Part shown: positions 51,159 through 62,290 of the stretch, piece after piece
Layout: every line of letters begins with the position of its first letter
How positions within the stretch are numbered: the stretch's first letter is position 1
NCBI GenBank assembly: GCA_026707585.1
Contig: JAPOWQ010000068.1
Span: 1-62,532 of the forward strand
Length of the DNA: 62,532 nt
Source of the DNA: Chloroflexota bacterium
GTDB taxonomy: Bacteria > Chloroflexota > UBA11872
Direction of reading: 5' to 3'
Notes under the pieces: generated by a model
Database searches by the model: none
What the model saw: only the letters and a program-made list of their open reading frames with translations
What the model was told of the DNA's origin: nothing
Position numbers and translations under genes: made by a program

Positions 51159-52034
51159 TCACTCCCAACTGTCCAGGCCCAGCAGTTTCCGGCCCAGGGC
51201 GGTCAGGACGGCCGGCGACTGGGTTCGATGTTCCCGGTCACGAGGATCCCGCGGCCAGCCGGGCCCGCCGCCTGGCGACTTGGCCGGTCGGCGCTCCCGC
51301 CACGACTCGATGCGCAATCGCCGCAGTTCCTCATCGTCGTCCGCCGGTTGCATGGTGATGTACTGCGCCAGACGCGGCTTGTCGGACCTGTTGTGACCGT
51401 TGCCGTGCGCCAGCTTGCGGTCCCAGATAATCAGGTCGCCGGCCTTGCCGGCAATTGGCTTGACCTCAAGTCCTTCCAGGTCGGGCGACCAGGGATCGCG
51501 GTCGGCGGGCTGGGTCTTCACCCAGTCGTCAAAGCCGCGATGAAAGCCCGGAACGCACTGGAAGCCGCCCTGGTCCTCCGCCGTATCGGTCAGATACAGC
51601 ACCCCCTGCACCCCAAACGGAATCTCCCGGCGCGACGTATCCACGTCCCAGTGAATCATGCCCGTATGGCCCCAATCCGGCCGGTCGGCTCGCACGGGTG
51701 GCTTCATGTTGACCCGGTCCAGCGAGACCCACAGCCGCTCGCTCCCAAATATCTGCGCGAAGGCCTGATGCACCCGCGGGTACTGCCGGTTGTCCCACAT
51801 CGCCTGGTGCTGGTACATCGACACCATGCCGGCCTCGGAAATCGGCGTCTGCGGATCACTGCGGTCATACGGCGCCCACTTGTACCAATCGTCCGGCCTG
51901 TCCGGGTCCATCTCCAGGAAGTCCCAGATGGCCTCCACCAGCGCCGCCAGCTGCGCCCCCGGCACCGCATCCGGCACCACCACATATCCCTGCTCATCCC
52001 AAAACGCCAGCTCGCGCCCGCTCAGCACCGCCAT
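51159..52034 (-). CDS. phytanoyl-CoA dioxygenase family protein (copy 1)
   Basis: A 291-residue Fe(II)/2-oxoglutarate dioxygenase fold. The iron facial triad is read as H-W-D in MIHWDVD with the distal histidine in KLAHGNGHN. The N-terminal FWDEQGYVVVPDAVPGAQL is the usual PhyH opening. The GFQCVPGFHRG segment precedes the distal histidine. The substrate is unknown; many of these act on small metabolites rather than phytanoyl-CoA. Divergent from the second copy with 191 bases between. Confidence 0.9.
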   Translation of the reverse strand: MAVLSGRELAFWDEQGYVVVPDAVPGAQLAALVEAIWDFLEMDPDRPDDWYKWAPYDRSDPQTPISEAGMVSMYQHQAMWDNRQYPRVHQAFAQIFGSERLWVSLDRVNMKPPVRADRPDWGHTGMIHWDVDTSRREIPFGVQGVLYLTDTAEDQGGFQCVPGFHRGFDDWVKTQPADRDPWSPDLEGLEVKPIAGKAGDLIIWDRKLAHGNGHNRSDKPRLAQYITMQPADDDEELRRLRIESWRERRPAKSPGGGPGWPRDPRDREHRTQSPAVLTALGRKLLGLDSWE

Positions 52035-52136: not shown

Positions 52137-52166
52137 TTGTCGGCATCGCTCGCGCGGCTCTATACT
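52137..52166 (+). promoter_or_regulatory. promoter of the second phytanoyl-CoA dioxygenase gene
   Basis: TTGTCG (52137-52142) and TATACT (52161-52166) are separated by 18 bases and lie about 60 bases upstream of the ATG at 52226. Confidence 0.55.
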
Positions 52167-52225
52167 CGCTCGGCAGAGCCGACTAGAATCCGGCGACGAG
52201 GCCTACGCCCTTCGGCACCGAAACA

Positions 52226-53194
52226 ATGAGCCTCACAGCCGAGCAGCTCGATCACTTCCAGCGTGCAGGTTACGTGGTGGCCAGGAATGTTCTGATTCCT
52301 GGTGAAGACCTTCAGCCAGTTATCGATGAGTACGCCGAAGTCCTGGATCGGATGGCCCGGCGCATGCACGCGGACGGCGAGATTCGCTCCATCTACGCCG
52401 ACCTGCCGTTCGAACAGCGCGCGATCGCCATCGTCAAGGACGCTGGCGCCCTGGACCAGCAAGCGTTCGATATCAGCTTTCCGGCCCACAGCGCGCTGAA
52501 ACCCGACACCGGGTTCCACTTTGGGCCGGCCGTCTTTGGCCTGCTCCGCAATCGAAGGCTGCTCGACGCGGTCGAGTCAATCCTTGGACCTGAAGTCACG
52601 TCGAATCCGATCCAACACGTACGCATGAAGGTGCCCGAGCATCTGATTCATCCGGACAAGCGCACCAGCCTGAACGCGCAGACCGGCTGGCATCAGGACA
52701 ACGGGGTCGTGCAAACCGAGGCGGATAGCTCCGACCTGCTGACCGTCTGGTTTCCGCTCACCGAATCAAGTCTGCGCAATGGTTGCCTCATGGTCGTCCC
52801 GCGCAGCCACGTCGAGGGTCTGCGCGTCCACTGTTCCGATGCCCGCCAGAGCCAGATCCCGACCCAACTGGTACCCAAGGAACGCATCCGGCCGCTGCCC
52901 ATGTCCCCGGGCGATGTCCTCTTCATGCACCAGCGCTGTATGCACGCCTCGCTGGCCAACGTGAGCGACGAGATTCGCTGGAGCCTGGATATCCGCTATC
53001 ACCCGACCGGCCAGCCGTCCGGCCGGGACTACTACCCCAGCTTCGTCGCGCGCAGCCGAGCCAATCCCGACTCCGAGCTACGTGACCCGGACGCATGGCG
53101 GCGGAGCTGGCTCGATGTTCGTCAGCGCATTCTCGCGATCAACCAGCCGCTGGGCTCCGATCGCTGGGACGGCACGCACGAACTGTGCGCCTAG
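52226..53194 (+). CDS. phytanoyl-CoA dioxygenase family protein (copy 2)
   Basis: A 322-residue PhyH dioxygenase. LDHFQRAGYVVARNVL opens it, the H-x-D of the iron site is in GWHQDNGVVQ, and GCLMVVPRSHVEGL and the distal histidine CMHASLANVSDEIRWSLDIRY complete the core. The arginine in DIRY is placed to bind 2-oxoglutarate. It is only distantly related to copy 1. It is transcribed alone from its own promoter and converges on the DegT gene. Confidence 0.92.
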   Translation: MSLTAEQLDHFQRAGYVVARNVLIPGEDLQPVIDEYAEVLDRMARRMHADGEIRSIYADLPFEQRAIAIVKDAGALDQQAFDISFPAHSALKPDTGFHFGPAVFGLLRNRRLLDAVESILGPEVTSNPIQHVRMKVPEHLIHPDKRTSLNAQTGWHQDNGVVQTEADSSDLLTVWFPLTESSLRNGCLMVVPRSHVEGLRVHCSDARQSQIPTQLVPKERIRPLPMSPGDVLFMHQRCMHASLANVSDEIRWSLDIRYHPTGQPSGRDYYPSFVARSRANPDSELRDPDAWRRSWLDVRQRILAINQPLGSDRWDGTHELCA

Positions 53195-53299
53195 CCGCGC
53201 CGACCGCTGGGATCCAAGCCCACTAGGGTCCTCATCCAGGAACCTGAGAGCGCGGTCTCAATGACTGCAACCGGTTTCGGTCCGCGAGCCGCACCGGCG

Positions 53300-54589
53300 C
53301 TAGCCGCCGATCAACGCCTCCCGCTGGTCCCAGACCTTGTGGAACGCGTCTAGGTATTGGTCGATTAGCGCGGACTGGTCGCCTCGCAGCGCCGCCGCCC
53401 CCATCACCTCCAATTCGCTGGTCGCGCAGCGGGCTTCGGCCACCGGGCAATCGCCCTGGCGGTATAGCTCAGAGGAGTGGTCGTTCAGCGCCCACGGCAT
53501 GCCTTCGCCGTAGAAGTAGTGCCGTTCCTGGAAGCGCGCTCGCAGGTGAATTGGCGTACGCACATACCCCAGCGTGATCTGCACCCCCTCGGCGGCGACA
53601 GCCTCCACGAAAGCCTCGCGCGTCAGACCCTCGGCCTCCTCCGGAACAAATGACGGGCAGTACTTGTGGTAGCAGTGCTCGGCGCCCGGCAACTCCACCA
53701 CGGGGCTGATGCAGGGGATGTCACTCAGCCCGTCCGAGAGCCGGTGATGATTCGCGCGCCGCGCCAGGTTCCACTCCGGCAGGAAGTCCAGCTGGCGGTT
53801 CACGATCACGGCCGCCATCGGGTGCATGCGGAACGTGTACGTCAGGTTGTTCATGTAGCGCGCTACCTCGGGATCCGAGATGTCGCGTTCCTGGCGCCGT
53901 TGATGCGAGCCAATCTCGATCAGGCGCTGCCACATCGCGGCGTCGTCCGTAACCACGCAGCCGCCGTCGCCGCCGATGATCTGCTTGCCGTTGCCGAAGC
54001 TGAAGCAGGCCAGGTCGCCCAGGGTCCCGACTTCGTGACCGCGGTAGAACGCGCCCATGGCCTGGGCGCAGTCTTCGATCACCGGAAGCCCATGGCGGCG
54101 CCCGATCTCGACGATGGGATCCATGTCCGCCGGATGGCCATAGATGTGGACGACCAGGATGGCTTTCGTGCGCTCGGTAATCGCCGCTTCGACGGCGTCG
54201 GGACGCATCGTGAACGAATCCGGGTCGATATCGGCGAACACGGGCGTACCGAGTTGATGCAGGATCGGTGAGACCGTTTGCGGCCACGTGTAGGGCGACA
54301 CCACGACCTCATCGCCCGCGCCCACCCCGGCAGCGTAGAGCGCCATCTGGATCGCGGCCGTGCATGAGTTACTGGTTACCGCATGCCGCCGACCCAGGTA
54401 TTCGCCGATGTGGGCTTCGAGCGCGGCGATCGGACCTCCGGCGGGCATCGAATCGAGGTAGCTGACGTCGGTCTGCGAGATCCTGATGGCCTCGTGCAGG
54501 TCGCGGATCTCGGGCTCGCCGATGTGCGGCCAGAGCGGGCGCTCAAGGGTGACGGCGGGCTCGCCGCCCAGGACGGCCAGTTCACTCAT
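53300..54589 (-). CDS. DegT/DnrJ/EryC1/StrS family aminotransferase
   Basis: A 429-residue fold-type I PLP enzyme. SNSCTAAIQMALYAAGVGAGDEVVVSPYTW is the family opening, VIEDCAQAMGAFY the cofactor Asp region, and FSFGNGKQIIGGDGG holds the PLP lysine. Members aminate keto-sugars for surface glycans or antibiotics, or make amino-cyclitols. It is the last gene of the minus-strand cluster, 162 bases after the gamma-glutamyltransferase, so it might be a separate transcript. Confidence 0.92.
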   Translation of the reverse strand: MSELAVLGGEPAVTLERPLWPHIGEPEIRDLHEAIRISQTDVSYLDSMPAGGPIAALEAHIGEYLGRRHAVTSNSCTAAIQMALYAAGVGAGDEVVVSPYTWPQTVSPILHQLGTPVFADIDPDSFTMRPDAVEAAITERTKAILVVHIYGHPADMDPIVEIGRRHGLPVIEDCAQAMGAFYRGHEVGTLGDLACFSFGNGKQIIGGDGGCVVTDDAAMWQRLIEIGSHQRRQERDISDPEVARYMNNLTYTFRMHPMAAVIVNRQLDFLPEWNLARRANHHRLSDGLSDIPCISPVVELPGAEHCYHKYCPSFVPEEAEGLTREAFVEAVAAEGVQITLGYVRTPIHLRARFQERHYFYGEGMPWALNDHSSELYRQGDCPVAEARCATSELEVMGAAALRGDQSALIDQYLDAFHKVWDQREALIGG

Positions 54590-54751
54590 CGCGTCCCACC
54601 TTTCGACTGGCGACCATTCGTCTTCGAATCATCGCTCACACCATCTTCCGCGCTGGCGTCCATACCGGCAAACGAGAGGGGTGGGTTGGTCCAAGTCCGG
54701 GAACTTGTTCAATGGACCGGCACTCAACAGCTATAGGCGCTCGACCATCGT

Positions 54752-56467
54752 TCACAGAGCTACGGCTGCCGTCCGATGCAGATTCGAGATGCCACTGCGG
54801 AACCCCCGTCCGTCCGGCAGGACTTCAATCGTCACCGGGCGGCCGAAGAAGGGGGAATGGACGGTCTCCTCCACGACGTGAATCTCGTGCCCAAGCGACC
54901 GCAACTCGCGCAGCACGTTCTTGCCGACTCGAACATCCACCCAGGCGTCACCGGTCTCACAATGCACACGCGGCGCCTCGATCACCTCCTGCGCGCTCAT
55001 CCCGAAATCGACAATCCCGCAGATCACGTGGATCTGGCAGCTGATGGTTGTGCGGCCGCCGGAGGCGCCGAAGACCAGGCGCGGCGCACCGTTCCGGAGG
55101 AGGACGACATTGGGCGCGAACGCCATCACTCGGCGGTTCGGGCGAATCGAGTTCGCTCGGCCGGGCTCCGGATCGAACGAGATCATGGCGTTGTTCAGGA
55201 CGATGCCCGTGCCCGGCACGGTGACGCCCGACCCGAACGCGCCTCCGTGCGTGACGTTGAAGCTCGCCAGGTTGCCGTCGCAATCGGCGGCGACGACCTG
55301 GGTCGTTCCAGGGTTGTCGATTCCGCGGGAGGCTTCACGCTTGCTCGCCGGGCGTTGCTGTCCGGTAATGCGCGTTTCATGCGGCCATGGGTCGATGGGT
55401 TGCACCCTGCTGCTCGCCCGCCGCATGTCGATGCGGTCGGCGATCTCGGCCGCATACGCCTTGCTCCACAGCGCATCGATCGGCGTGGGCATCATCCCGG
55501 GATCGGCCAGGTACTCGAGAACCGCGCTGAACGCGTATCGCATCGTCTCGATCATGAGATGGCGGTACGCCGGGCTATCGGGGCTCAGGGACGCCAGGTC
55601 GAAGTTCTCGAGGACGTTGAGCATCAGCGGAGCGAAATAGCCGTCGGCCCAGACCAACTCGTATCCCCGATACGTGAAGGGTCGCTCCTGCGAATCGATG
55701 CGCACCGGCAGGTCGCGAAGATCTTGAGCCGTCAGGATTCCACCGACGGATGCCAGGTGTTGCTCAATCCGTTTGGCCAGCTCACCGCCGTGAAAGACGG
55801 CGGCACCATTGCGCGCGACTTGCTGCAAACTCTGTGCGAGGTCGGCTTGGACGATCATCGAGCCCGCCTGATGCGCGCTGCCCGGGCTCGGCGGCACGCC
55901 GCCAGGAGCGAAGATCTCGGCCGTGGACGGATAGCGCAAAAGCTCGCGCAGGTGGCTCCCAATCGTCAGGGCCGAATGGCCGTCGACCGGAAACCCATCC
56001 CGCGCATAGGCGATGGCTGGTTCCAGCAGCCGTGCCAGCGGGAGGCTGCCATAGGCGTCCAGCACAGCGCTCATCCCGGCGAGCGCACCGGGCGTGGCGA
56101 TGGAACGCGGGCCGTGCATATTGGCGTCGTCCCTGACCCTGCGCCAGCGCCCCCATGGGTCGAGCCCCGGCTCGAGCTCGAACATGTCTTCGGTCGCAGC
56201 CGCCGGAACTCCTCGAACCGGGTAGAGCACGGTTGTCTCACCGCTGGCCGCCAGGTGCATCACGCCCTGCACAGTCCCGCCCACCCCGCACATCTCGGGC
56301 TCGACGACCCAGGACGCGAACACGGCGGCCGCCGCCGCGTCGATCGCATTGCCGCCGTCCATCAGAACCTGCGCCCCGACATCCGCCGACAGGCGGTGGC
56401 CGGTACAAATCATCCCGACGGACGAACGGACGGCGTTCCTGGAAACGCTGAGCTCGGCTCGTCTCAC
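54752..56467 (-). CDS. gamma-glutamyltransferase family protein
   Basis: A 571-residue Ntn hydrolase. DGGNAIDAAAAAVFASWVVEPEMCGVGG is the large-subunit opening. The autoprocessing and catalytic threonine is T388 in NPGTTQVVAADCDGNLASFN (family: TTH-x-S-V-D-x-x-G-N). The C-terminal FGASGGRTTISCQ and DFGMSAQEVIEAPRVH are intact. No signal peptide is seen, so it may act in the cytoplasm. It starts at GTG with GGAGG six bases upstream. It lies between an unknown protein and DegT in a sugar-type ABC cluster, an unusual setting. Confidence 0.9.
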   Translation of the reverse strand: MRRAELSVSRNAVRSSVGMICTGHRLSADVGAQVLMDGGNAIDAAAAAVFASWVVEPEMCGVGGTVQGVMHLAASGETTVLYPVRGVPAAATEDMFELEPGLDPWGRWRRVRDDANMHGPRSIATPGALAGMSAVLDAYGSLPLARLLEPAIAYARDGFPVDGHSALTIGSHLRELLRYPSTAEIFAPGGVPPSPGSAHQAGSMIVQADLAQSLQQVARNGAAVFHGGELAKRIEQHLASVGGILTAQDLRDLPVRIDSQERPFTYRGYELVWADGYFAPLMLNVLENFDLASLSPDSPAYRHLMIETMRYAFSAVLEYLADPGMMPTPIDALWSKAYAAEIADRIDMRRASSRVQPIDPWPHETRITGQQRPASKREASRGIDNPGTTQVVAADCDGNLASFNVTHGGAFGSGVTVPGTGIVLNNAMISFDPEPGRANSIRPNRRVMAFAPNVVLLRNGAPRLVFGASGGRTTISCQIHVICGIVDFGMSAQEVIEAPRVHCETGDAWVDVRVGKNVLRELRSLGHEIHVVEETVHSPFFGRPVTIEVLPDGRGFRSGISNLHRTAAVAL

Positions 56468-56564
56468 CCGCCGCCTCCGAAGCCGATCACAACGCCTTCA
56501 CGCCTGGCAGCCCACGGCGTGCGCGCGGACTGTACGGAACCTGCGCTACGTATCGCTGTGCCGC

Positions 56565-57437
56565 CTAGTCCTCGGCCGACAGCAACACCGAGTCCAGGTA
56601 GAAGAAGCAGCGCCGGTCGGCATCGGCCTCCACCGCGAAGGCCAGGTTCAACAGATTTGACAGGTTCGACTCGGCCTCCCCCGACACCGGCGGAAAGCCG
56701 CGCAGGTCATATACCCGGTCGTTGCACTGGAATTCCAGGGAGTGCAGTCCGTCGAGGTCAACCAGCCAGCGCACGTAGTGCCAGTTGATCTTGGTGGCCA
56801 CCTCGTTGTAGCAGAGCGGCTGATAGGCGTCGGGAATGTCCTCGAACTCGTCGGCACGCAGCGCATGCGTCGATCCGGCCGACGCCTTGTCGCTGGGGCC
56901 AGTGCGAACCTTTGGGCGCATGTACTTCGACCTGGTCTGCCAGACCCGTCGAAGTTCGCCTTCCTGCGAGTTGTGGTAGCGAATGGAGGGAATCGCCCGG
57001 CGTCCCCGGTCCTCATATCCGTCCTGGAGGTCCATCTGGATGGTGAACGCGCGTAATTCTTCATCCCCCAACGTGAGCCGCGAGGCTTCCACGGTATAGG
57101 TGATGAACGCCTCGAGCTGAATCACGCCGAGACGCTGCCAGGTCATGCGTTTCACCGCATACGCGAAGTGCCCGGGTTGGCCGCGCGTCGCGATCTTGAG
57201 GGCATAGGTGCCGTCCATCGCCCCGTGCGACCCGATGTCGAACATTGGAATCGACGAGAGCATGGGCGCTCGCGTGTCGTCAGAGTTCCTGATGTTGTCC
57301 AGCGTCTCCTCATAGTTGCCCACGAGCTGTGTCCATCCGCACACGCCGTCGTCGAAGTCGTCATACGAAATGATCCGTGGCAGCGGATTGAATTTGCTAA
57401 GCGCGGGGTTTCCGTGGCTCGCGACGTGCGCGTTCAT
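56565..57437 (-). CDS. unrecognised 290-residue protein in the ABC cluster
   Basis: I do not recognise the family. It has no signal peptide or membrane helix. The sequence is rich in aromatic and acidic residues and reads like beta-sandwich (DDFDDGVCGWTQLVGNYEETL; GTYALKIATRG; WHYVRWLVDLDGLHSLEFQCND; FFYLDSVLL), recalling carbohydrate-binding or laminin-G-like jelly rolls. ATG with AGGAGG nine bases upstream. It is followed 97 bases on by the gamma-glutamyltransferase and preceded by another unknown gene 86 bases upstream. Confidence 0.75.
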   Translation of the reverse strand: MNAHVASHGNPALSKFNPLPRIISYDDFDDGVCGWTQLVGNYEETLDNIRNSDDTRAPMLSSIPMFDIGSHGAMDGTYALKIATRGQPGHFAYAVKRMTWQRLGVIQLEAFITYTVEASRLTLGDEELRAFTIQMDLQDGYEDRGRRAIPSIRYHNSQEGELRRVWQTRSKYMRPKVRTGPSDKASAGSTHALRADEFEDIPDAYQPLCYNEVATKINWHYVRWLVDLDGLHSLEFQCNDRVYDLRGFPPVSGEAESNLSNLLNLAFAVEADADRRCFFYLDSVLLSAED

Positions 57438-57523
57438 CTAGGCAGTCCTCCTGTCGACAGGGGCTCGGCGCACCGCGTCGTGTCGCATCGGCATGCCAGG
57501 TCCGGTACGGATCCAGTCGCGAG

Positions 57524-57850
57524 CTACTTGAGGTCCCACGAGAAGATCACTTTCAGCCCTCCCGTGGTACATCCGACCACGCGCAGCCAGCTGCCAAAGT
57601 GGGCAACGCTCACAAAGTGCACGCCTGGATCGAGCGAACCGCGCAGCGCCGCCCCATGGTCGGCCCAGTGGATCCCGTCCGACGAAATCTGAACGCGCAG
57701 ATCGATCCCGGGACTTTCGCCTTCGGTCTCCAGCACGTGAAGGAATCCGATGGCTTCCAGCGCCCAGCCGGCCTCATAGGGCTCGACCTCGAAGTCTCCG
57801 CGCCACCACGCATTCCGCTCGACGACCGCGATATGGCTGCGGCGAATCAT
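57524..57850 (-). CDS. unrecognised 108-residue protein in the ABC cluster
   Basis: I do not recognise it. IRRSHIAVVERNAWWRGDFEVEPYEAGWALEAIGFLHVLET and SSDGIHWADHG suggest a small all-beta domain with many Trp and His residues; the SDGIHW pattern resembles turns in galactose-binding-like or sialidase-like beta folds. No signal peptide. ATG 57850 has GGAGGGG five bases before it; a GTG at 57856 is also in frame. It sits 13 bases after the permease stop, so it is certainly in that operon. Confidence 0.68.
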   Translation of the reverse strand: MIRRSHIAVVERNAWWRGDFEVEPYEAGWALEAIGFLHVLETEGESPGIDLRVQISSDGIHWADHGAALRGSLDPGVHFVSVAHFGSWLRVVGCTTGGLKVIFSWDLK

Positions 57851-57863
57851 GCCCACCCCTCCG

Positions 57864-58976
57864 TCATCCCTTGATGCCGGAAAGCGAAATCCCGGCGATG
57901 AAGTACCGCTGGAACAGCAGGAACAGGATGAAAACCGGCAGCGTCACCAGGACCCCGCCGGCCATCCCGTATTGCCACTGGATCACGCTTTCTCCCTGGA
58001 CGCTCCGAAAGCTGGAAAGCCAGATCGACAGCGTATGCAGGTCCACCTTGCGGAGAAAGATCAGCGGCTCGATGAACGCGCCCCATGACCCCTGCAGGCT
58101 GAGAATCGCCACGGCGACCATCGCGGGCGTCGCCTGGGGCAAGACGATCCGACGCCAGATTGCGAATTCCGACGCCCCATCCACGCGCCCGGCCTCGATC
58201 AGTTCATGCGGAATGGTCAGGAAGTACTGTCGCATGATGAATATGTACAGCGCGCTGCTTCCCGCCGCGCCAAAGAACTCGGGCACCACCAGCGGCAAAT
58301 AGGTGTTCTGGGCCCAGCTTCGCGATTCGAAGAAGATCGTCCAACTGAATACCTGGCCAAGTTGATCCTGCAAAATGTAGGTGTTTCCGGAAAACAGCAC
58401 GAACAAGGGAATAATTCGCACGATAAACGGAACCATGAGGCTGCTGAGAACAAGCAAGAAGAGCAGGTTTCGGCCTGGGAATCTCAGCCGCGCAAACCCA
58501 TAGCCCACAAAGGACGCAATTCCAACATTAGCAACCAGATTGAAGACCGTCATCAAACTCGTGTTTTTGAATAGCTGCAAGACATTAAACCGCTCAAAGG
58601 TGAACAGGAAGGGATAGTTGCCCCACTGCGGCTCGCGCGGCAGCAGCAGGTAGGGTTCGACCTCGTAGGTCTCGGGCAGCGTCTTCAGTGACGTGGACAC
58701 CATCCAAAAGATGGGGATAAGAGCCAGCACGCTGATGCCGATCATCAGCTCATAGCGAATGGCCGACGCCAGGCGCCGTTGCAGACGCGGCCCACCCCAC
58801 CGCGGAATTCTCGGCGACACCAGCCATGCCACGCCGGAAAGGTCCAGAATCCAATTGGCCGCAATCACAATCGTCCACAGCAGTTCGCCCGACGACATGC
58901 CAATCGGCGTCGGCTGATCGCCAATGGAACGTCCGCCGAAGACCACGAACCCCAGCCACAAAATGGTGGCGATCAT
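57864..58976 (-). CDS. carbohydrate ABC transporter permease (MalG-like) with N-terminal extension
   Basis: A 370-residue inner-membrane permease. The EAA loop is ELIEAGRVDGASEFAIWRRIVLPQATPAM, and SGIKG ends it, both as in MalG-type subunits. Such proteins usually have about 280 residues. Here an extra N-terminal part of about 85 residues holds two more hydrophobic helices (MIATILWLGFVVFGG; LLWTIVIAANWILDLSGVAWLV). The ATG at 58976 overlaps the stop of the partner permease by four bases. Confidence 0.9.
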   Translation of the reverse strand: MIATILWLGFVVFGGRSIGDQPTPIGMSSGELLWTIVIAANWILDLSGVAWLVSPRIPRWGGPRLQRRLASAIRYELMIGISVLALIPIFWMVSTSLKTLPETYEVEPYLLLPREPQWGNYPFLFTFERFNVLQLFKNTSLMTVFNLVANVGIASFVGYGFARLRFPGRNLLFLLVLSSLMVPFIVRIIPLFVLFSGNTYILQDQLGQVFSWTIFFESRSWAQNTYLPLVVPEFFGAAGSSALYIFIMRQYFLTIPHELIEAGRVDGASEFAIWRRIVLPQATPAMVAVAILSLQGSWGAFIEPLIFLRKVDLHTLSIWLSSFRSVQGESVIQWQYGMAGGVLVTLPVFILFLLFQRYFIAGISLSGIKG

Positions 58977-59908
58977 GACTCGGGCTGCTCGTAGTGCACC
59001 AGCCGGCGCGAGACCCAAAACGACAGAGCCGTGAGAAGCATGATGATGAAGAAGAGAATGGTAGCAAGAGCCGATGCGTAACCGAATTCAAACGATACGA
59101 ATGCCTTTCGCCACAGGTAAAGCACGTAGAAAAGCGTCGAATCCAGCGGTCCTCCCTGCGTCAACACGAAGGCCGTGGTAAAGACCTGGAACGAGTTGAT
59201 GATCCCGATAATGATGACCAGGAAAATCGTCGGCGATACCAGGGGAATCGTGACGTGGAGCAACTTACGCAGCGGACCGGCGCCATCAATCTCAGCAGCT
59301 TCGTAGAGATGCGGCGGAACGGCCTGCAGGGCGGCCAGGAATAGGATCATCTGCACGCCAATGCTCGACCATACGGTGAGAATGACGATCCCAGGCTTGG
59401 ACCAATACTCGTCAACCATGAACCGTGGCGTCGGAATACCCATCGTGTCTTCAAGCAGGAACTTCAGTAATCCGAGCTCCGGTTGGAGCACCCATGCCCA
59501 GACAATCGAAGCGACAACCAGCGGCATGATCGTGGGAAGAAAGTAGAAGGCTCGAAAGAGCGATGCGAGCGGGAGTTTGGTGTTCACCAACACGGCCAGC
59601 AGAAATCCAATGACCACTTGGCACGGTACTAACAGGCCGACGTATATCGCCGTATTGACTAACGACTTGAGGAATTTCTCGTCGTCGGTAAATATCTCAA
59701 TAAAGTTCTCCAGGCCTGCGAACGTAGGAGCTTGGAGAATGTCGTACTCGGTGAATCCCCACGCGATGATGGCCACCGTGGGCCCTAGGCTGAATATCAC
59801 GAACCCCAGGATCCACGGCGCGATGAAGACGAAGCCCCACACGGCCTCCCGTCGGCCGATGGTCCAGCGCGGGGCTCGCACAGCCAGGTTTGGCCGTGCG
59901 AGCCTCAC
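58973..59908 (-). CDS. carbohydrate ABC transporter permease (MalF-like)
   Basis: A 311-residue permease with six helices. AVWGFVFIAPWILGFVIFSLGPTVAI opens it, and the EAA loop is YEAAEIDGAGPLRKLLHVTIPLVSPT. It is the partner of the next gene, overlapping it by four bases, and follows the binding protein by 60 bases. No ATPase gene lies in the cluster, so a shared MsmK/UgpC-like ATPase is expected elsewhere. It starts at GTG. Confidence 0.93.
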   Translation of the reverse strand: MRLARPNLAVRAPRWTIGRREAVWGFVFIAPWILGFVIFSLGPTVAIIAWGFTEYDILQAPTFAGLENFIEIFTDDEKFLKSLVNTAIYVGLLVPCQVVIGFLLAVLVNTKLPLASLFRAFYFLPTIMPLVVASIVWAWVLQPELGLLKFLLEDTMGIPTPRFMVDEYWSKPGIVILTVWSSIGVQMILFLAALQAVPPHLYEAAEIDGAGPLRKLLHVTIPLVSPTIFLVIIIGIINSFQVFTTAFVLTQGGPLDSTLFYVLYLWRKAFVSFEFGYASALATILFFIIMLLTALSFWVSRRLVHYEQPES

Positions 59909-59968
59909 CGGCCAATCAGGCTTGCTCGTCCGCGAAAACCCTTACGAACCGGAACGTCTGGCCCCCGT

Positions 59969-61528
59969 CTACAGGCTGGCGAAGAACTCATCCAGGAGCT
60001 CACGCGTCTGACCGGCCATCGACGCCAGCGTTTCTTCAGGCGACTGCTTGCCAGCCATCATCAGCTCCATCTCGTCCTTCAGCACCTGGTCGATGTCCGG
60101 GTTCACCGGCGTGATCGGTGATGCCTCGACCAGCGGAAGTACCGACTTCAGGTCGTTCCAGAGCGGTTCGGACTGGTACAGCGGGTCGTCGTTGTACTTG
60201 GGAACCGACGATGGGCGCTTGAGGTTGCCCATGAACGCCAGGTTGCCCTCACCCGCGGTCAGGTATCGCAGCCACTCCCAGCCCTCTTCCAGGTTTTGCG
60301 CCCCCTTGGGCATCCCGTACGACCAGCCGTCGTCGGAAATCGAGCGCGGCCTCGCATTCGGGTTGGTGTCGTCGTACGGCATGTGCGTCACACCGGCGTT
60401 GATGTCCGGCGCGTCCCGGCGCATCACGCCCAGGAACCACACGCCTTCCACGCGCATGGTCAGCAGACCGTTGTAAAACGCGGTCCGGGAAGCGCCCACG
60501 GCGTCCATGTATCCCTGGATGTTGTCCCAGCCGTCGTTGAGCTTCTGCACCATGTCGAGCTGCCATGTGACGTTGCGCTGCCCGATCGCGTCATCGAACA
60601 ACACCGATTTGGCGTCCTCCGTGAACATGTGGCCGCCGGCCGGGAACTGCCAGCCCTTGAAACTGGCATCCGTGCGCGCGCCCTTGATCATTTCCGGCAC
60701 GAACATGCCGTGGCGGGTGATTTCGCCGCCTTCGCGCACGGTGGTCTTCAGCGCCATCTCCTCCAGCTCGGTCCATGTCGTCGGCGGTGTGTCCGGGTCC
60801 AGACCGACCTCTTCGAACGTGTCCTTGTTCCACCAGAAGAGATACCAGGCGCCCGTGTTATCCAGGGGTAGCGTGTACTGGACGTCCAGCCAGCTTCCCT
60901 TCGGCCATTCACCCGCGTAGAAGATATCGGCCAGATTCAGCCCGGCCTTTCCAATGAATGCGTCCAGCGGAATGATCCCCCCGCGCGCCGCGAATTGCGG
61001 CACCCGCGATTCCTGAATCTGAATCACGTCGGGCGGATCGCCGCCAGCGATCTGGGTGAGGTAGATCTCATACATCTGCGCTTCTTCGATCCGCTCGTTC
61101 ACGATCTCAATGTAGGGAAACTGCGCTTCGAAGCCGGGAATCATCTTCTCTTCAATCGTCGGCTGGAAGGCGTCGGCCCAGACTTCCTGCCAGCGCACCT
61201 TCACCGTCTCCCGCATGGCGGGAACCTCTTTGACGACTTCCTTGACGACTTCGCGAGTTACGACACGGTCAACCGGAACTTCCTTTGTGACGACTTTCTC
61301 CTGCGTAACAATCCTCTCGACCGGGACTTCCTTGATTTCGGTCTTTGTTACCACGGTCTCAACTGGAACTTCCTTTACCACAATCTTTTCGACCGGAACT
61401 TCCTTCGTAACGATCTGAGGCTCGGCCTCACCGCAGGCCGCAAGTGCCGCGGCGCCCGCTGCGCTAATGCCCAGTCCGCCGGCAATTCGCAGAAGTCGGC
61501 GCCGCGTCATGTGCGAGTTCTTGCCCAT
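59969..61528 (-). CDS. sugar-type ABC substrate-binding lipoprotein with repeat stalk
   Basis: A 519-residue extracytoplasmic solute-binding protein (family 1). The signal has a twin-arginine-like TRRRLLRIAGG and a lipobox LAAC with C32. Residues about 40-105 form a stalk of KEVPVE-type repeats. The binding domain follows (VRWQEVWADAFQPTIEEKMIPGFEAQFP onwards). GGDPPDVIQIQ and LYFWWNKD-like segments fit sugar binders. The ATG at 61528 has GAGAGG nine bases upstream; the frame open to 61876 has no signal. It begins the cluster of two permeases, two unknown proteins, gamma-glutamyltransferase and DegT. Confidence 0.92.
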   Translation of the reverse strand: MGKNSHMTRRRLLRIAGGLGISAAGAAALAACGEAEPQIVTKEVPVEKIVVKEVPVETVVTKTEIKEVPVERIVTQEKVVTKEVPVDRVVTREVVKEVVKEVPAMRETVKVRWQEVWADAFQPTIEEKMIPGFEAQFPYIEIVNERIEEAQMYEIYLTQIAGGDPPDVIQIQESRVPQFAARGGIIPLDAFIGKAGLNLADIFYAGEWPKGSWLDVQYTLPLDNTGAWYLFWWNKDTFEEVGLDPDTPPTTWTELEEMALKTTVREGGEITRHGMFVPEMIKGARTDASFKGWQFPAGGHMFTEDAKSVLFDDAIGQRNVTWQLDMVQKLNDGWDNIQGYMDAVGASRTAFYNGLLTMRVEGVWFLGVMRRDAPDINAGVTHMPYDDTNPNARPRSISDDGWSYGMPKGAQNLEEGWEWLRYLTAGEGNLAFMGNLKRPSSVPKYNDDPLYQSEPLWNDLKSVLPLVEASPITPVNPDIDQVLKDEMELMMAGKQSPEETLASMAGQTRELLDEFFASL

Positions 61529-62290
61529 CTCGAATGCCTCTCCCTCAGCGCGCCGCATCCGCTCGACGCCGTGCGCCAAGGTACCATGCGGGAACGAAGA
61601 ATTCATAGTCGAATTGCTTTTCCCCAACGCGATCTCCTGGTCACCGCATAACGCATGGACGGCCTGACACGGCGTGCCTGCGCGCCCGCTTTCTCTGCGA
61701 AGCACATTAATCGCGGACCGCATCCTGGACCCCGATGCCCTAAGACGTCTCCCAAACCCGGAAGTGCTGATGGGAGCCCACATCCAGAGTTGAACCGGAG
61801 ACCTCGTTCGTTCCGGGGACGACGCTCGACGGTGTGGCTCTACTCCGCTGCTGCTCCTGGCAATCTGACGCTGCAAGTCCTGGAGTTACCCCGCGCTCCC
61901 CGCCGCCGGCCTGACGGCCTTCAGCTTCACGGCTGCCGCGGCCCACCCACGGTCGCCGGCGGAGCGCCGATGACGCGCACGCTGACAGCCGCCAACACCG
62001 GCGGCGTGTGGACGCTGGACGCAACGACCGCCCCCACCATGGTCCCGGTCACGATCACCGTCACGACCGCGGGCTGAAGGCGGCGGCGGGCGGGGGCGCC
62101 CGGCCCGCTGGCCTGAAGTCGACGACGGGGTGCCCGAGCCTCGGGGACCGGGCCGGCGGATGGGCTGGGGCTGATGGCATGAAGGTTGTTGCATAACGCA
62201 CAGTCTTTGTGATTATCTTTTCTCTATTGCGCCCCGACCGGGTAGAGCGAATGTCGGCCAGCGGACGAATCGCGCCCCGTCGGTTCACCA
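61529..62290. other. region without a complete gene
   Basis: This stretch upstream of the binding-protein gene shows no intact supported gene. On the plus strand 61970-62077 encodes a short beta-like tail (LTAANTGGVWTLDATTAPTMVPVTITV, ending at 62077) that may be a remnant of a secreted protein, but it lacks a plausible start. An AT-rich patch at 62190-62230 could hold a promoter. Confidence 0.35.

What the first reader, a model, noticed from the sequence alone, without database searches (positions are those of the whole stretch)
53300..61528. Sugar-type ABC transporter cluster with two unknown proteins, a cytoplasmic gamma-glutamyltransferase and a DegT aminotransferase
Seven minus-strand genes run in order: binding protein, two permeases, a 108-residue and a 290-residue unknown beta-rich protein, a GGT lacking a signal peptide, and DegT. 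Tight spacing (13 bases from permease to first unknown) ties the unknowns to transport. The set suggests uptake of a glycosyl or amino-sugar compound carrying a gamma-glutamyl group, which is cut inside the cell. I know of no described pathway with this content. This is the best candidate for an undescribed system in the window.
Basis: inference. Interest (0 to 1): 0.78.

Follow-up and report, generated by a model that had tools for sequence, protein, structure and literature searches.

The report
Obligate protein pair beside sugar importer

Summary
The seven genes are real and placed as stated. The 290-residue protein is Pfam DUF6772 (340 bits); the 108-residue one (p110) is only a sub-threshold relative of DUF6385. 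The main result is that these two form an obligate pair: in 400 genomes of the phylum, independent searches find both in exactly the same 20 genomes, 25 copies each; in 39 dereplicated loci, with record titles from eight phyla, 41 of 42 DUF6772 genes have p110 as same-strand neighbour, 36 within 30 bases. Models give a concanavalin-like sandwich and a small jelly-roll. Sugar ABC permeases and sugar-acid dehydratases recur beside the pair in distant lineages, so the link to sugar uptake is general. GGT and DegT are not part of the general system: they occur only in four congeneric genomes, in a co-inherited 9.5-kb block that also holds a PhyH dioxygenase. The GGT keeps its Thr nucleophile but has replaced all six gamma-glutamyl-binding residues. 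Best explanation: a two-subunit cytoplasmic enzyme acting on an imported (probably acidic) sugar or glycoside. Physical contact, catalysis and substrate are unproven.

The parts
59969..61528 (-). Solute-binding lipoprotein of a sugar-type (CUT1-like) ABC importer
   Evidence: SBP_bac_1 112 bits; nearest solved relatives are sugar-binding proteins
58973..59908 (-). Permease A (MalF/UgpA type)
   Evidence: BPD_transp_1; best NCBIfam match UgpA 119.5 bits, below its cut-off
57864..58976 (-). Permease B (MalG/UgpE type) with an N-terminal extension of roughly 90 residues; start overlaps the stop of permease A
   Evidence: BPD_transp_1 at residues 170-376; sequence at the junction
57524..57850 (-). 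p110 (108 aa): obligate partner of DUF6772, small jelly-roll protein, distant DUF6385 relative
   Evidence: Same 20 of 400 genomes as DUF6772; model pLDDT 94.8; DUF6385 16.4 bits against a cut-off of 26.8
56565..57437 (-). DUF6772 protein (290 aa): concanavalin-like beta-sandwich, no signal peptide
   Evidence: PF20562 339.7 bits; model pLDDT 88; fold matches
54752..56467 (-). GGT-superfamily Ntn amidohydrolase, leaderless, gamma-glutamyl pocket residues replaced
   Evidence: PF01019 364.5 bits; alignment with E. coli GGT
53300..54589 (-). DegT/DnrJ/EryC1/StrS aminotransferase with the PLP-binding Lys kept (K202)
   Evidence: PF01041 282 bits; alignment with 8gyh and 7b0d
52226..53194 (+). PhyH-type Fe(II)/2-oxoglutarate dioxygenase, convergent with DegT, part of the co-inherited block
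   Evidence: PF05721 94.7 bits; kept in all four genomes that hold the cassette
52139..61655 (.). Syntenic block shared by the four cassette-bearing genomes of the genus (right edge about 61605-61655 in two relatives; the third contig ends inside the binding-protein gene)
   Evidence: blastn at 86-91% identity

Best explanation
DUF6772 and p110 are the two subunits of one cytoplasmic complex, most likely an enzyme, that acts on a sugar compound (probably acidic: a uronide or sugar acid) brought in by a neighbouring ABC importer. Shown: obligate one-to-one co-occurrence, tight and often overlapping gene order, no signal peptides, beta-sandwich folds, and recurrent linkage to sugar importers and sugar-acid dehydratases. 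Inferred: that the two proteins touch, that the conserved polar residues of DUF6772 form an active site, and that the substrate is an acidic sugar or glycoside. In the window's genus the module travels in a 9.5-kb cassette with a GGT-like Ntn amidase that probably cuts a non-glutamyl amide, a DegT aminotransferase and a PhyH dioxygenase, which suggests that the local substrate carries an amide-linked amino group (N-acylated amino sugar or aminocyclitol). This last step is inference only.
For: Same 20 of 400 genomes and equal copy numbers from two independent searches. p110 found in 103 of 104 loci; same-strand neighbour of 41 of 42 DUF6772 genes, 36 within 30 bases. Confident models with a lectin/GH16/alginate-lyase-like sandwich and a jelly-roll. 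27 invariant DUF6772 columns, many charged. Permeases, MR/MLE dehydratases and binding proteins lead the neighbour tally and are enriched near against far. UxuA and a D-mannonate oxidoreductase-type SDR in L128, UxuA in L055, ManD in L112, PL8 lyases in L112 and L113. Annotated alphaproteobacterial operons with FadR/GntR, MR/MLE, two permeases, DUF6772, p110 and SDR. GGT and DegT confined to the genus cassette.
Against: No catalytic residue is demonstrated, and the fold matches include non-catalytic lectins and CBMs with low TM-scores. About half of the dereplicated loci have no sugar ABC permease near the pair, including the window genome's own second copy. Contexts vary (SSF, MFS or ABC transport), so one fixed substrate is not shown. 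No complex was modelled.
Confidence: 0.55

Rival explanations
1. The pair is a non-catalytic cytoplasmic sugar-binding (lectin-like) or regulatory complex, for instance a sensor or buffer for the imported sugar.
For: Both folds resemble lectins and carbohydrate-binding modules; DUF6772 has D-rich N-terminal and DS C-terminal motifs that in CBM-type jelly-rolls often hold structural calcium (own knowledge, not tested).
Against: Many invariant Lys, Arg, Glu and Asp residues over a whole 290-residue protein are more typical of an enzyme; most operons with the pair already have their own regulator (FadR/GntR, IclR or LacI type).
Confidence: 0.25
2. GGT, DegT and PhyH are a separate functional unit (for example tailoring of an aminocyclitol or N-acyl compound) that merely travels with the importer and pair.
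For: No DUF6772 locus outside four congeneric genomes carries them; gaps of 97 and 162 bases before GGT and DegT are larger than those inside the importer; PhyH is on the other strand.
Against: All three are kept in each of the four genomes with the window-type pair, and the GGT orthologue in none of the other 15 family genomes.
Confidence: 0.35
3. One reading: import of a gamma-glutamylated glycosyl or amino-sugar compound and removal of the gamma-glutamyl group in the cytoplasm by the GGT.
For: Importer and a leaderless GGT-superfamily enzyme in one conserved gene run.
Against: R114, N411, Q430, D433, S462 and S463 of E. coli GGT align with V, G, A, S, M and A; R114L and R114D abolish activity in E. 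coli GGT (PMC8062742); TIGR00066 scores 335.8, below its cut-off of 357.85.
Confidence: 0.06

Closest known systems
CUT1-type (MalFG/UgpAE) sugar ABC importer operons
   Same: SBP_bac_1 binding protein and two BPD_transp_1 permeases in one run
   Different: No ATPase gene in the cluster; the importer is followed by DUF6772, p110, GGT, DegT and PhyH
Hexuronate/aldonate catabolic islands (UxuA, UxuB-type SDR, ManD, MR/MLE dehydratases, SMP-30 lactonase)
   Same: Such genes surround the same pair in other bacteria
   Different: None of them is in the window cassette; published versions that I know of do not include DUF6772 or p110
Two-subunit C-glycoside deglycosidases (CGD; PMC8563793)
   Same: A larger and a small beta-rich subunit encoded together in sugar catabolism (analogy only)
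   Different: The CGD large subunit is a TIM barrel (own knowledge), DUF6772 a concanavalin-like sandwich; p110 relatives do not match CGDB PF19906 in Pfam
3-keto-disaccharide hydrolase family (PF06439, DUF1080)
   Same: Concanavalin-like sandwich used in sugar catabolism (own knowledge)
   Different: No profile similarity to DUF6772 (hhalign probability 0.2%)
Gamma-glutamyltransferase (E. coli GGT)
   Same: Superfamily, Thr nucleophile and Gly-Gly oxyanion pair kept
   Different: All six donor-binding residues replaced, PLSSM motif absent, no signal peptide

Membership tests
DUF6772 (PF20562) | Full-length match above the curated cut-off | tested here: met
   339.7 bits against 27, residues 9-289 of 290
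DUF6385 (PF19912) | Window p110 scores above the curated cut-off | tested here: not met
   16.4 bits against 26.8; all 58 relatives match at E<=1, best 5.5e-7, so a distant relative
Gamma-glutamyltransferase | Thr nucleophile and Gly-Gly oxyanion pair | tested here: met
   T388 aligns with T391 (small-chain start), GG kept
Gamma-glutamyltransferase | Gamma-glutamyl donor pocket (R114, N411, Q430, D433, S462, S463) | tested here: not met
   V, G, A, S, M, A at these columns; an Arg one column from R114 leaves a small alignment doubt there; roles in PMC8062742
Gamma-glutamyltransferase | NCBIfam equivalog TIGR00066 above cut-off | tested here: not met
   335.8 against 357.85
DegT/DnrJ/EryC1/StrS aminotransferase | Family score and PLP-binding Lys | tested here: met
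   282 bits; K202 aligns with the Lys of 8gyh
CUT1 sugar ABC importer | SBP_bac_1 protein plus two MalF/MalG-type permeases | tested here: met
CUT1 sugar ABC importer | MalK-type ATPase | not tested
   None in the cluster; the rest of the genome was not searched for one
3-keto-disaccharide hydrolase (PF06439) | Profile similarity to DUF6772 | tested here: not met
   hhalign probability 0.2%
C-glycoside deglycosidase beta subunit (PF19906) | p110 relatives match the family | tested here: not met
   None of 58 relatives lists it in Pfam at E<=1; the genome search with it had no working control

The most novel reading that the evidence does not exclude
DUF6772 and p110 form a previously undescribed class of two-subunit carbohydrate-active enzyme, a concanavalin-like catalytic sandwich with an obligate small jelly-roll partner, that works in the cytoplasm on imported uronides or other sugar acids in many bacterial phyla; in this Chloroflexota genus a non-glutamyl Ntn amidase, an aminotransferase and a dioxygenase extend it to an amide-bearing amino sugar or aminocyclitol.
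Probability: 0.35. Interest if true: 0.72.

Novelty: new variant of a known kind. Interest (0 to 1): 0.52.

Why it matters
An obligate, widespread protein pair with no assigned function sits in sugar-uptake and sugar-acid breakdown islands of culturable bacteria such as Bosea, Chelatococcus and Sphingomonas. Finding its reaction would name one Pfam family and one uncatalogued family at once, and the pair is now a well-defined, testable target. The GGT result also shows a GGT-type annotation that the sequence does not support.

Tried and rejected
Relationship of DUF6772 to 3-keto-disaccharide hydrolases: no profile similarity. Homology between DUF6772 and p110: none. Search of the phylum for CGDB (PF19906): nothing, but no control genome rang, so uninformative as an absence. 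Pair as a stand-in for glucuronate isomerase UxaC: rejected as a general rule, because UxaC is present in 9 of 13 DUF6772 genomes tested, although not found in the window's own genome. Sequence search of solved structures with both profiles: only chance-level or low-complexity hits. Literature: no held paper names DUF6772 or DUF6385; two context searches returned nothing. Model coordinates could not be read, so the placing of the invariant residues in the groove was not measured. One search asked for one base too many, and searches failed on wrong frames; the first was replaced, the others.

Full report
What is there. Pfam and NCBIfam name a sugar-type binding protein, two MalF/MalG-type permeases, a DUF6772 protein (340 bits), a GGT-superfamily enzyme and a DegT aminotransferase; the 108-residue protein (p110) has only a sub-threshold DUF6385 match. 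Permease B's ATG overlaps permease A's stop, and p110 starts 13 bases after permease B (and coordinates). The window is contig C26 of a 3.92-Mb genome. Its closest named relatives are metagenome-assembled genomes labelled Chloroflexi or Chloroflexota.

The obligate pair. DUF6772 was sought in 400 genomes of the phylum and found in 20. p110 was then sought independently with its own profile and found in the same 20 genomes, in matching copy number, 25 and 25. A scan of about 85,000 species genomes with DUF6772 alone found 261 relatives, of which the best 80 loci were fetched. Together with the loci from the phylum, 103 of 104 carry p110; in the exception, L103, the contig ends about 200 bases after DUF6772, and in L109 the p110 gene lies about 7 kb upstream. 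After dereplication at 85% identity to 39 loci, 41 of 42 DUF6772 genes have p110 as nearest same-strand neighbour, and in 36 it follows directly within 30 bases, often with overlapping stop and start; the exception is a third copy in L076. In the window, L105/L109, L124 and one copy of L042 the order is reversed; the tree needs about three changes of order, at least two forced by well-supported branches. Loci were chosen by DUF6772 only, so the adjacency is not a selection effect. By record title the hosts belong to Chloroflexota, Pseudomonadota, Spirochaetota, Latescibacterota, Rokubacteria, Acidobacteriota, Actinomycetota and Gemmatimonadota; many are metagenome bins, so single assignments may be wrong.

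Folds. Models from the alignments are confident (p110 pLDDT 94.8; DUF6772 pLDDT 88). p110 is a small jelly-roll whose weak matches include lectins and carbohydrate-binding modules. DUF6772 is a concanavalin-like sandwich; its matches include the Emp46/47 and legume lectins, alginate lyase vAL-1, GH16-like proteins and CBM16, with TM-scores of about 0.3-0.66. Neither has a recognisable signal peptide by inspection. Twenty-seven DUF6772 columns are invariant in 51 sequences, among them K81, K96, R97, E109, D136, R147, R153, K216 and Y221; in p110 E25, P26, E28, W31, S58, D60, G61, W64, G88 and R92.

Context. The Pfam tally of 118 same-strand neighbours is led by BPD_transp_1 (19), MR_MLE_C (9) and SBP_bac_1 (7). 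In 25 full-length loci a permease lies within 4 kb in 11 and at 4-9 kb in 3; an MR/MLE protein in 9 and 1. Annotated plasmids of Chelatococcus and Terrarubrum show SBP, SBP, FadR/GntR divergent from MR/MLE, permease, permease, DUF6772, hypothetical protein (p110), SDR; Roseomonas and Rhizobium have rearranged versions. UxuA passes its cut-off in L128 and L055, with a D-mannonate oxidoreductase-type SDR in L128; ManD passes in L112. L112 and L113 carry PL8 polysaccharide lyases. The importer genes of the window are 47-50% (permease A) and 32-34% (binding protein) identical to those beside the pair in L047 and L053. Pair-plus-importer loci fall in widely separated clades of the DUF6772 tree. The common theme is uptake and breakdown of sugars and sugar acids; the exact reaction is not shown. 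About half of the dereplicated loci, including the window genome's second copy (L026), have no sugar permease near the pair, so the importer is a frequent but not a fixed companion.

GGT, DegT and PhyH. GGT and DegT homologues occur beside DUF6772 only in the window and three congeneric genomes. Among the 19 genomes of the family, the GGT orthologue (86-89% identity) and the window-type DUF6772 orthologue (94-99%) are in exactly the same four genomes; the chance of that is 1 in 3876 if genomes were independent, which they are not. The shared block spans 52139 to about 61655 and includes the PhyH gene at 52226-53194. In two relatives its left edge lies beside another stretch resembling the binding-protein leader, and similar sequence occurs at 16 other places in the window's genome; recombination between leaders is a possible way for the block to move (inference).

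The GGT test. Aligned with E. coli GGT (2e0w), the window protein keeps the Thr nucleophile and the Gly-Gly pair but has V, G, A, S, M and A in place of R114, N411, Q430, D433, S462 and S463; the PLSSM motif is gone. R114L and R114D abolish activity in E. coli GGT (PMC8062742); N411 and Q430 as donor-binding residues are from my own knowledge. An Arg one column away leaves a small alignment uncertainty for R114. The protein is best called a GGT-superfamily amidase of unknown substrate.

Mechanism proposed. The importer takes up a sugar, probably acidic or glycosidic (inferred from families and context). DUF6772-p110 processes it in the cytoplasm (inferred from obligate pairing, fold and context). 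Dehydratases and dehydrogenases, where present, feed the product into central metabolism (family knowledge). In this genus an amidase, an aminotransferase and a dioxygenase may adapt the route to an amide-bearing amino sugar or aminocyclitol (speculative). A non-catalytic, lectin-like role for the pair remains possible.

Limits. Only the best 80 of 261 relatives were read. Gene calls in the flanks come from open frames and homology, not from a trained gene finder. Kinship between genomes inflates simple chance figures. The confidences given for the rivals are not mutually exclusive: the separate-unit reading of GGT, DegT and PhyH is compatible with the best explanation of the pair.

Noticed in passing
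window 61200-61700 and 16 other places in G000: The 5' region of the binding-protein gene (signal and KEVPVE-repeat coding part) has relatives at 65-79% DNA identity at 16 other places in the genome, and one lies at the left edge of the cassette in two relatives; a possible recombination site between importer operons.
   Followed up: partly
window 52226-53194 and 51159-52034: Two PhyH-type dioxygenase genes lie left of DegT; only the first is kept in all four cassette genomes.
   Followed up: partly
window 57864-58976: Permease B carries an N-terminal extension of roughly 90 residues with hydrophobic stretches before the usual MalG-type domain, conserved in the three relatives.
   Followed up: no
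G000:C16:65375-66271 (L001, L026): A second DUF6772-p110 pair in the same genome, about 40% identical, in the opposite gene order and without a sugar importer nearby; it is the common copy in the genus.
   Followed up: partly
L112:5142-7571 and L113:919-4371: PL8 polysaccharide lyases (hyaluronate or xanthan lyase superfamily) within 5-9 kb of the pair together with mannonate dehydratases.
   Followed up: partly
G125:C105:30721-32430 (L165): The GGT-like orthologue in genome G125 is listed with one TGA inside the matched range; a sequencing error or a damaged end.
   Followed up: no
L069:7071-8072 and L084:11181-12149: An AstE/AspA-type acylase-like protein follows the pair in Comamonadaceae loci (Pfam match for L069 only), another possible amide-cutting companion.
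   Followed up: no
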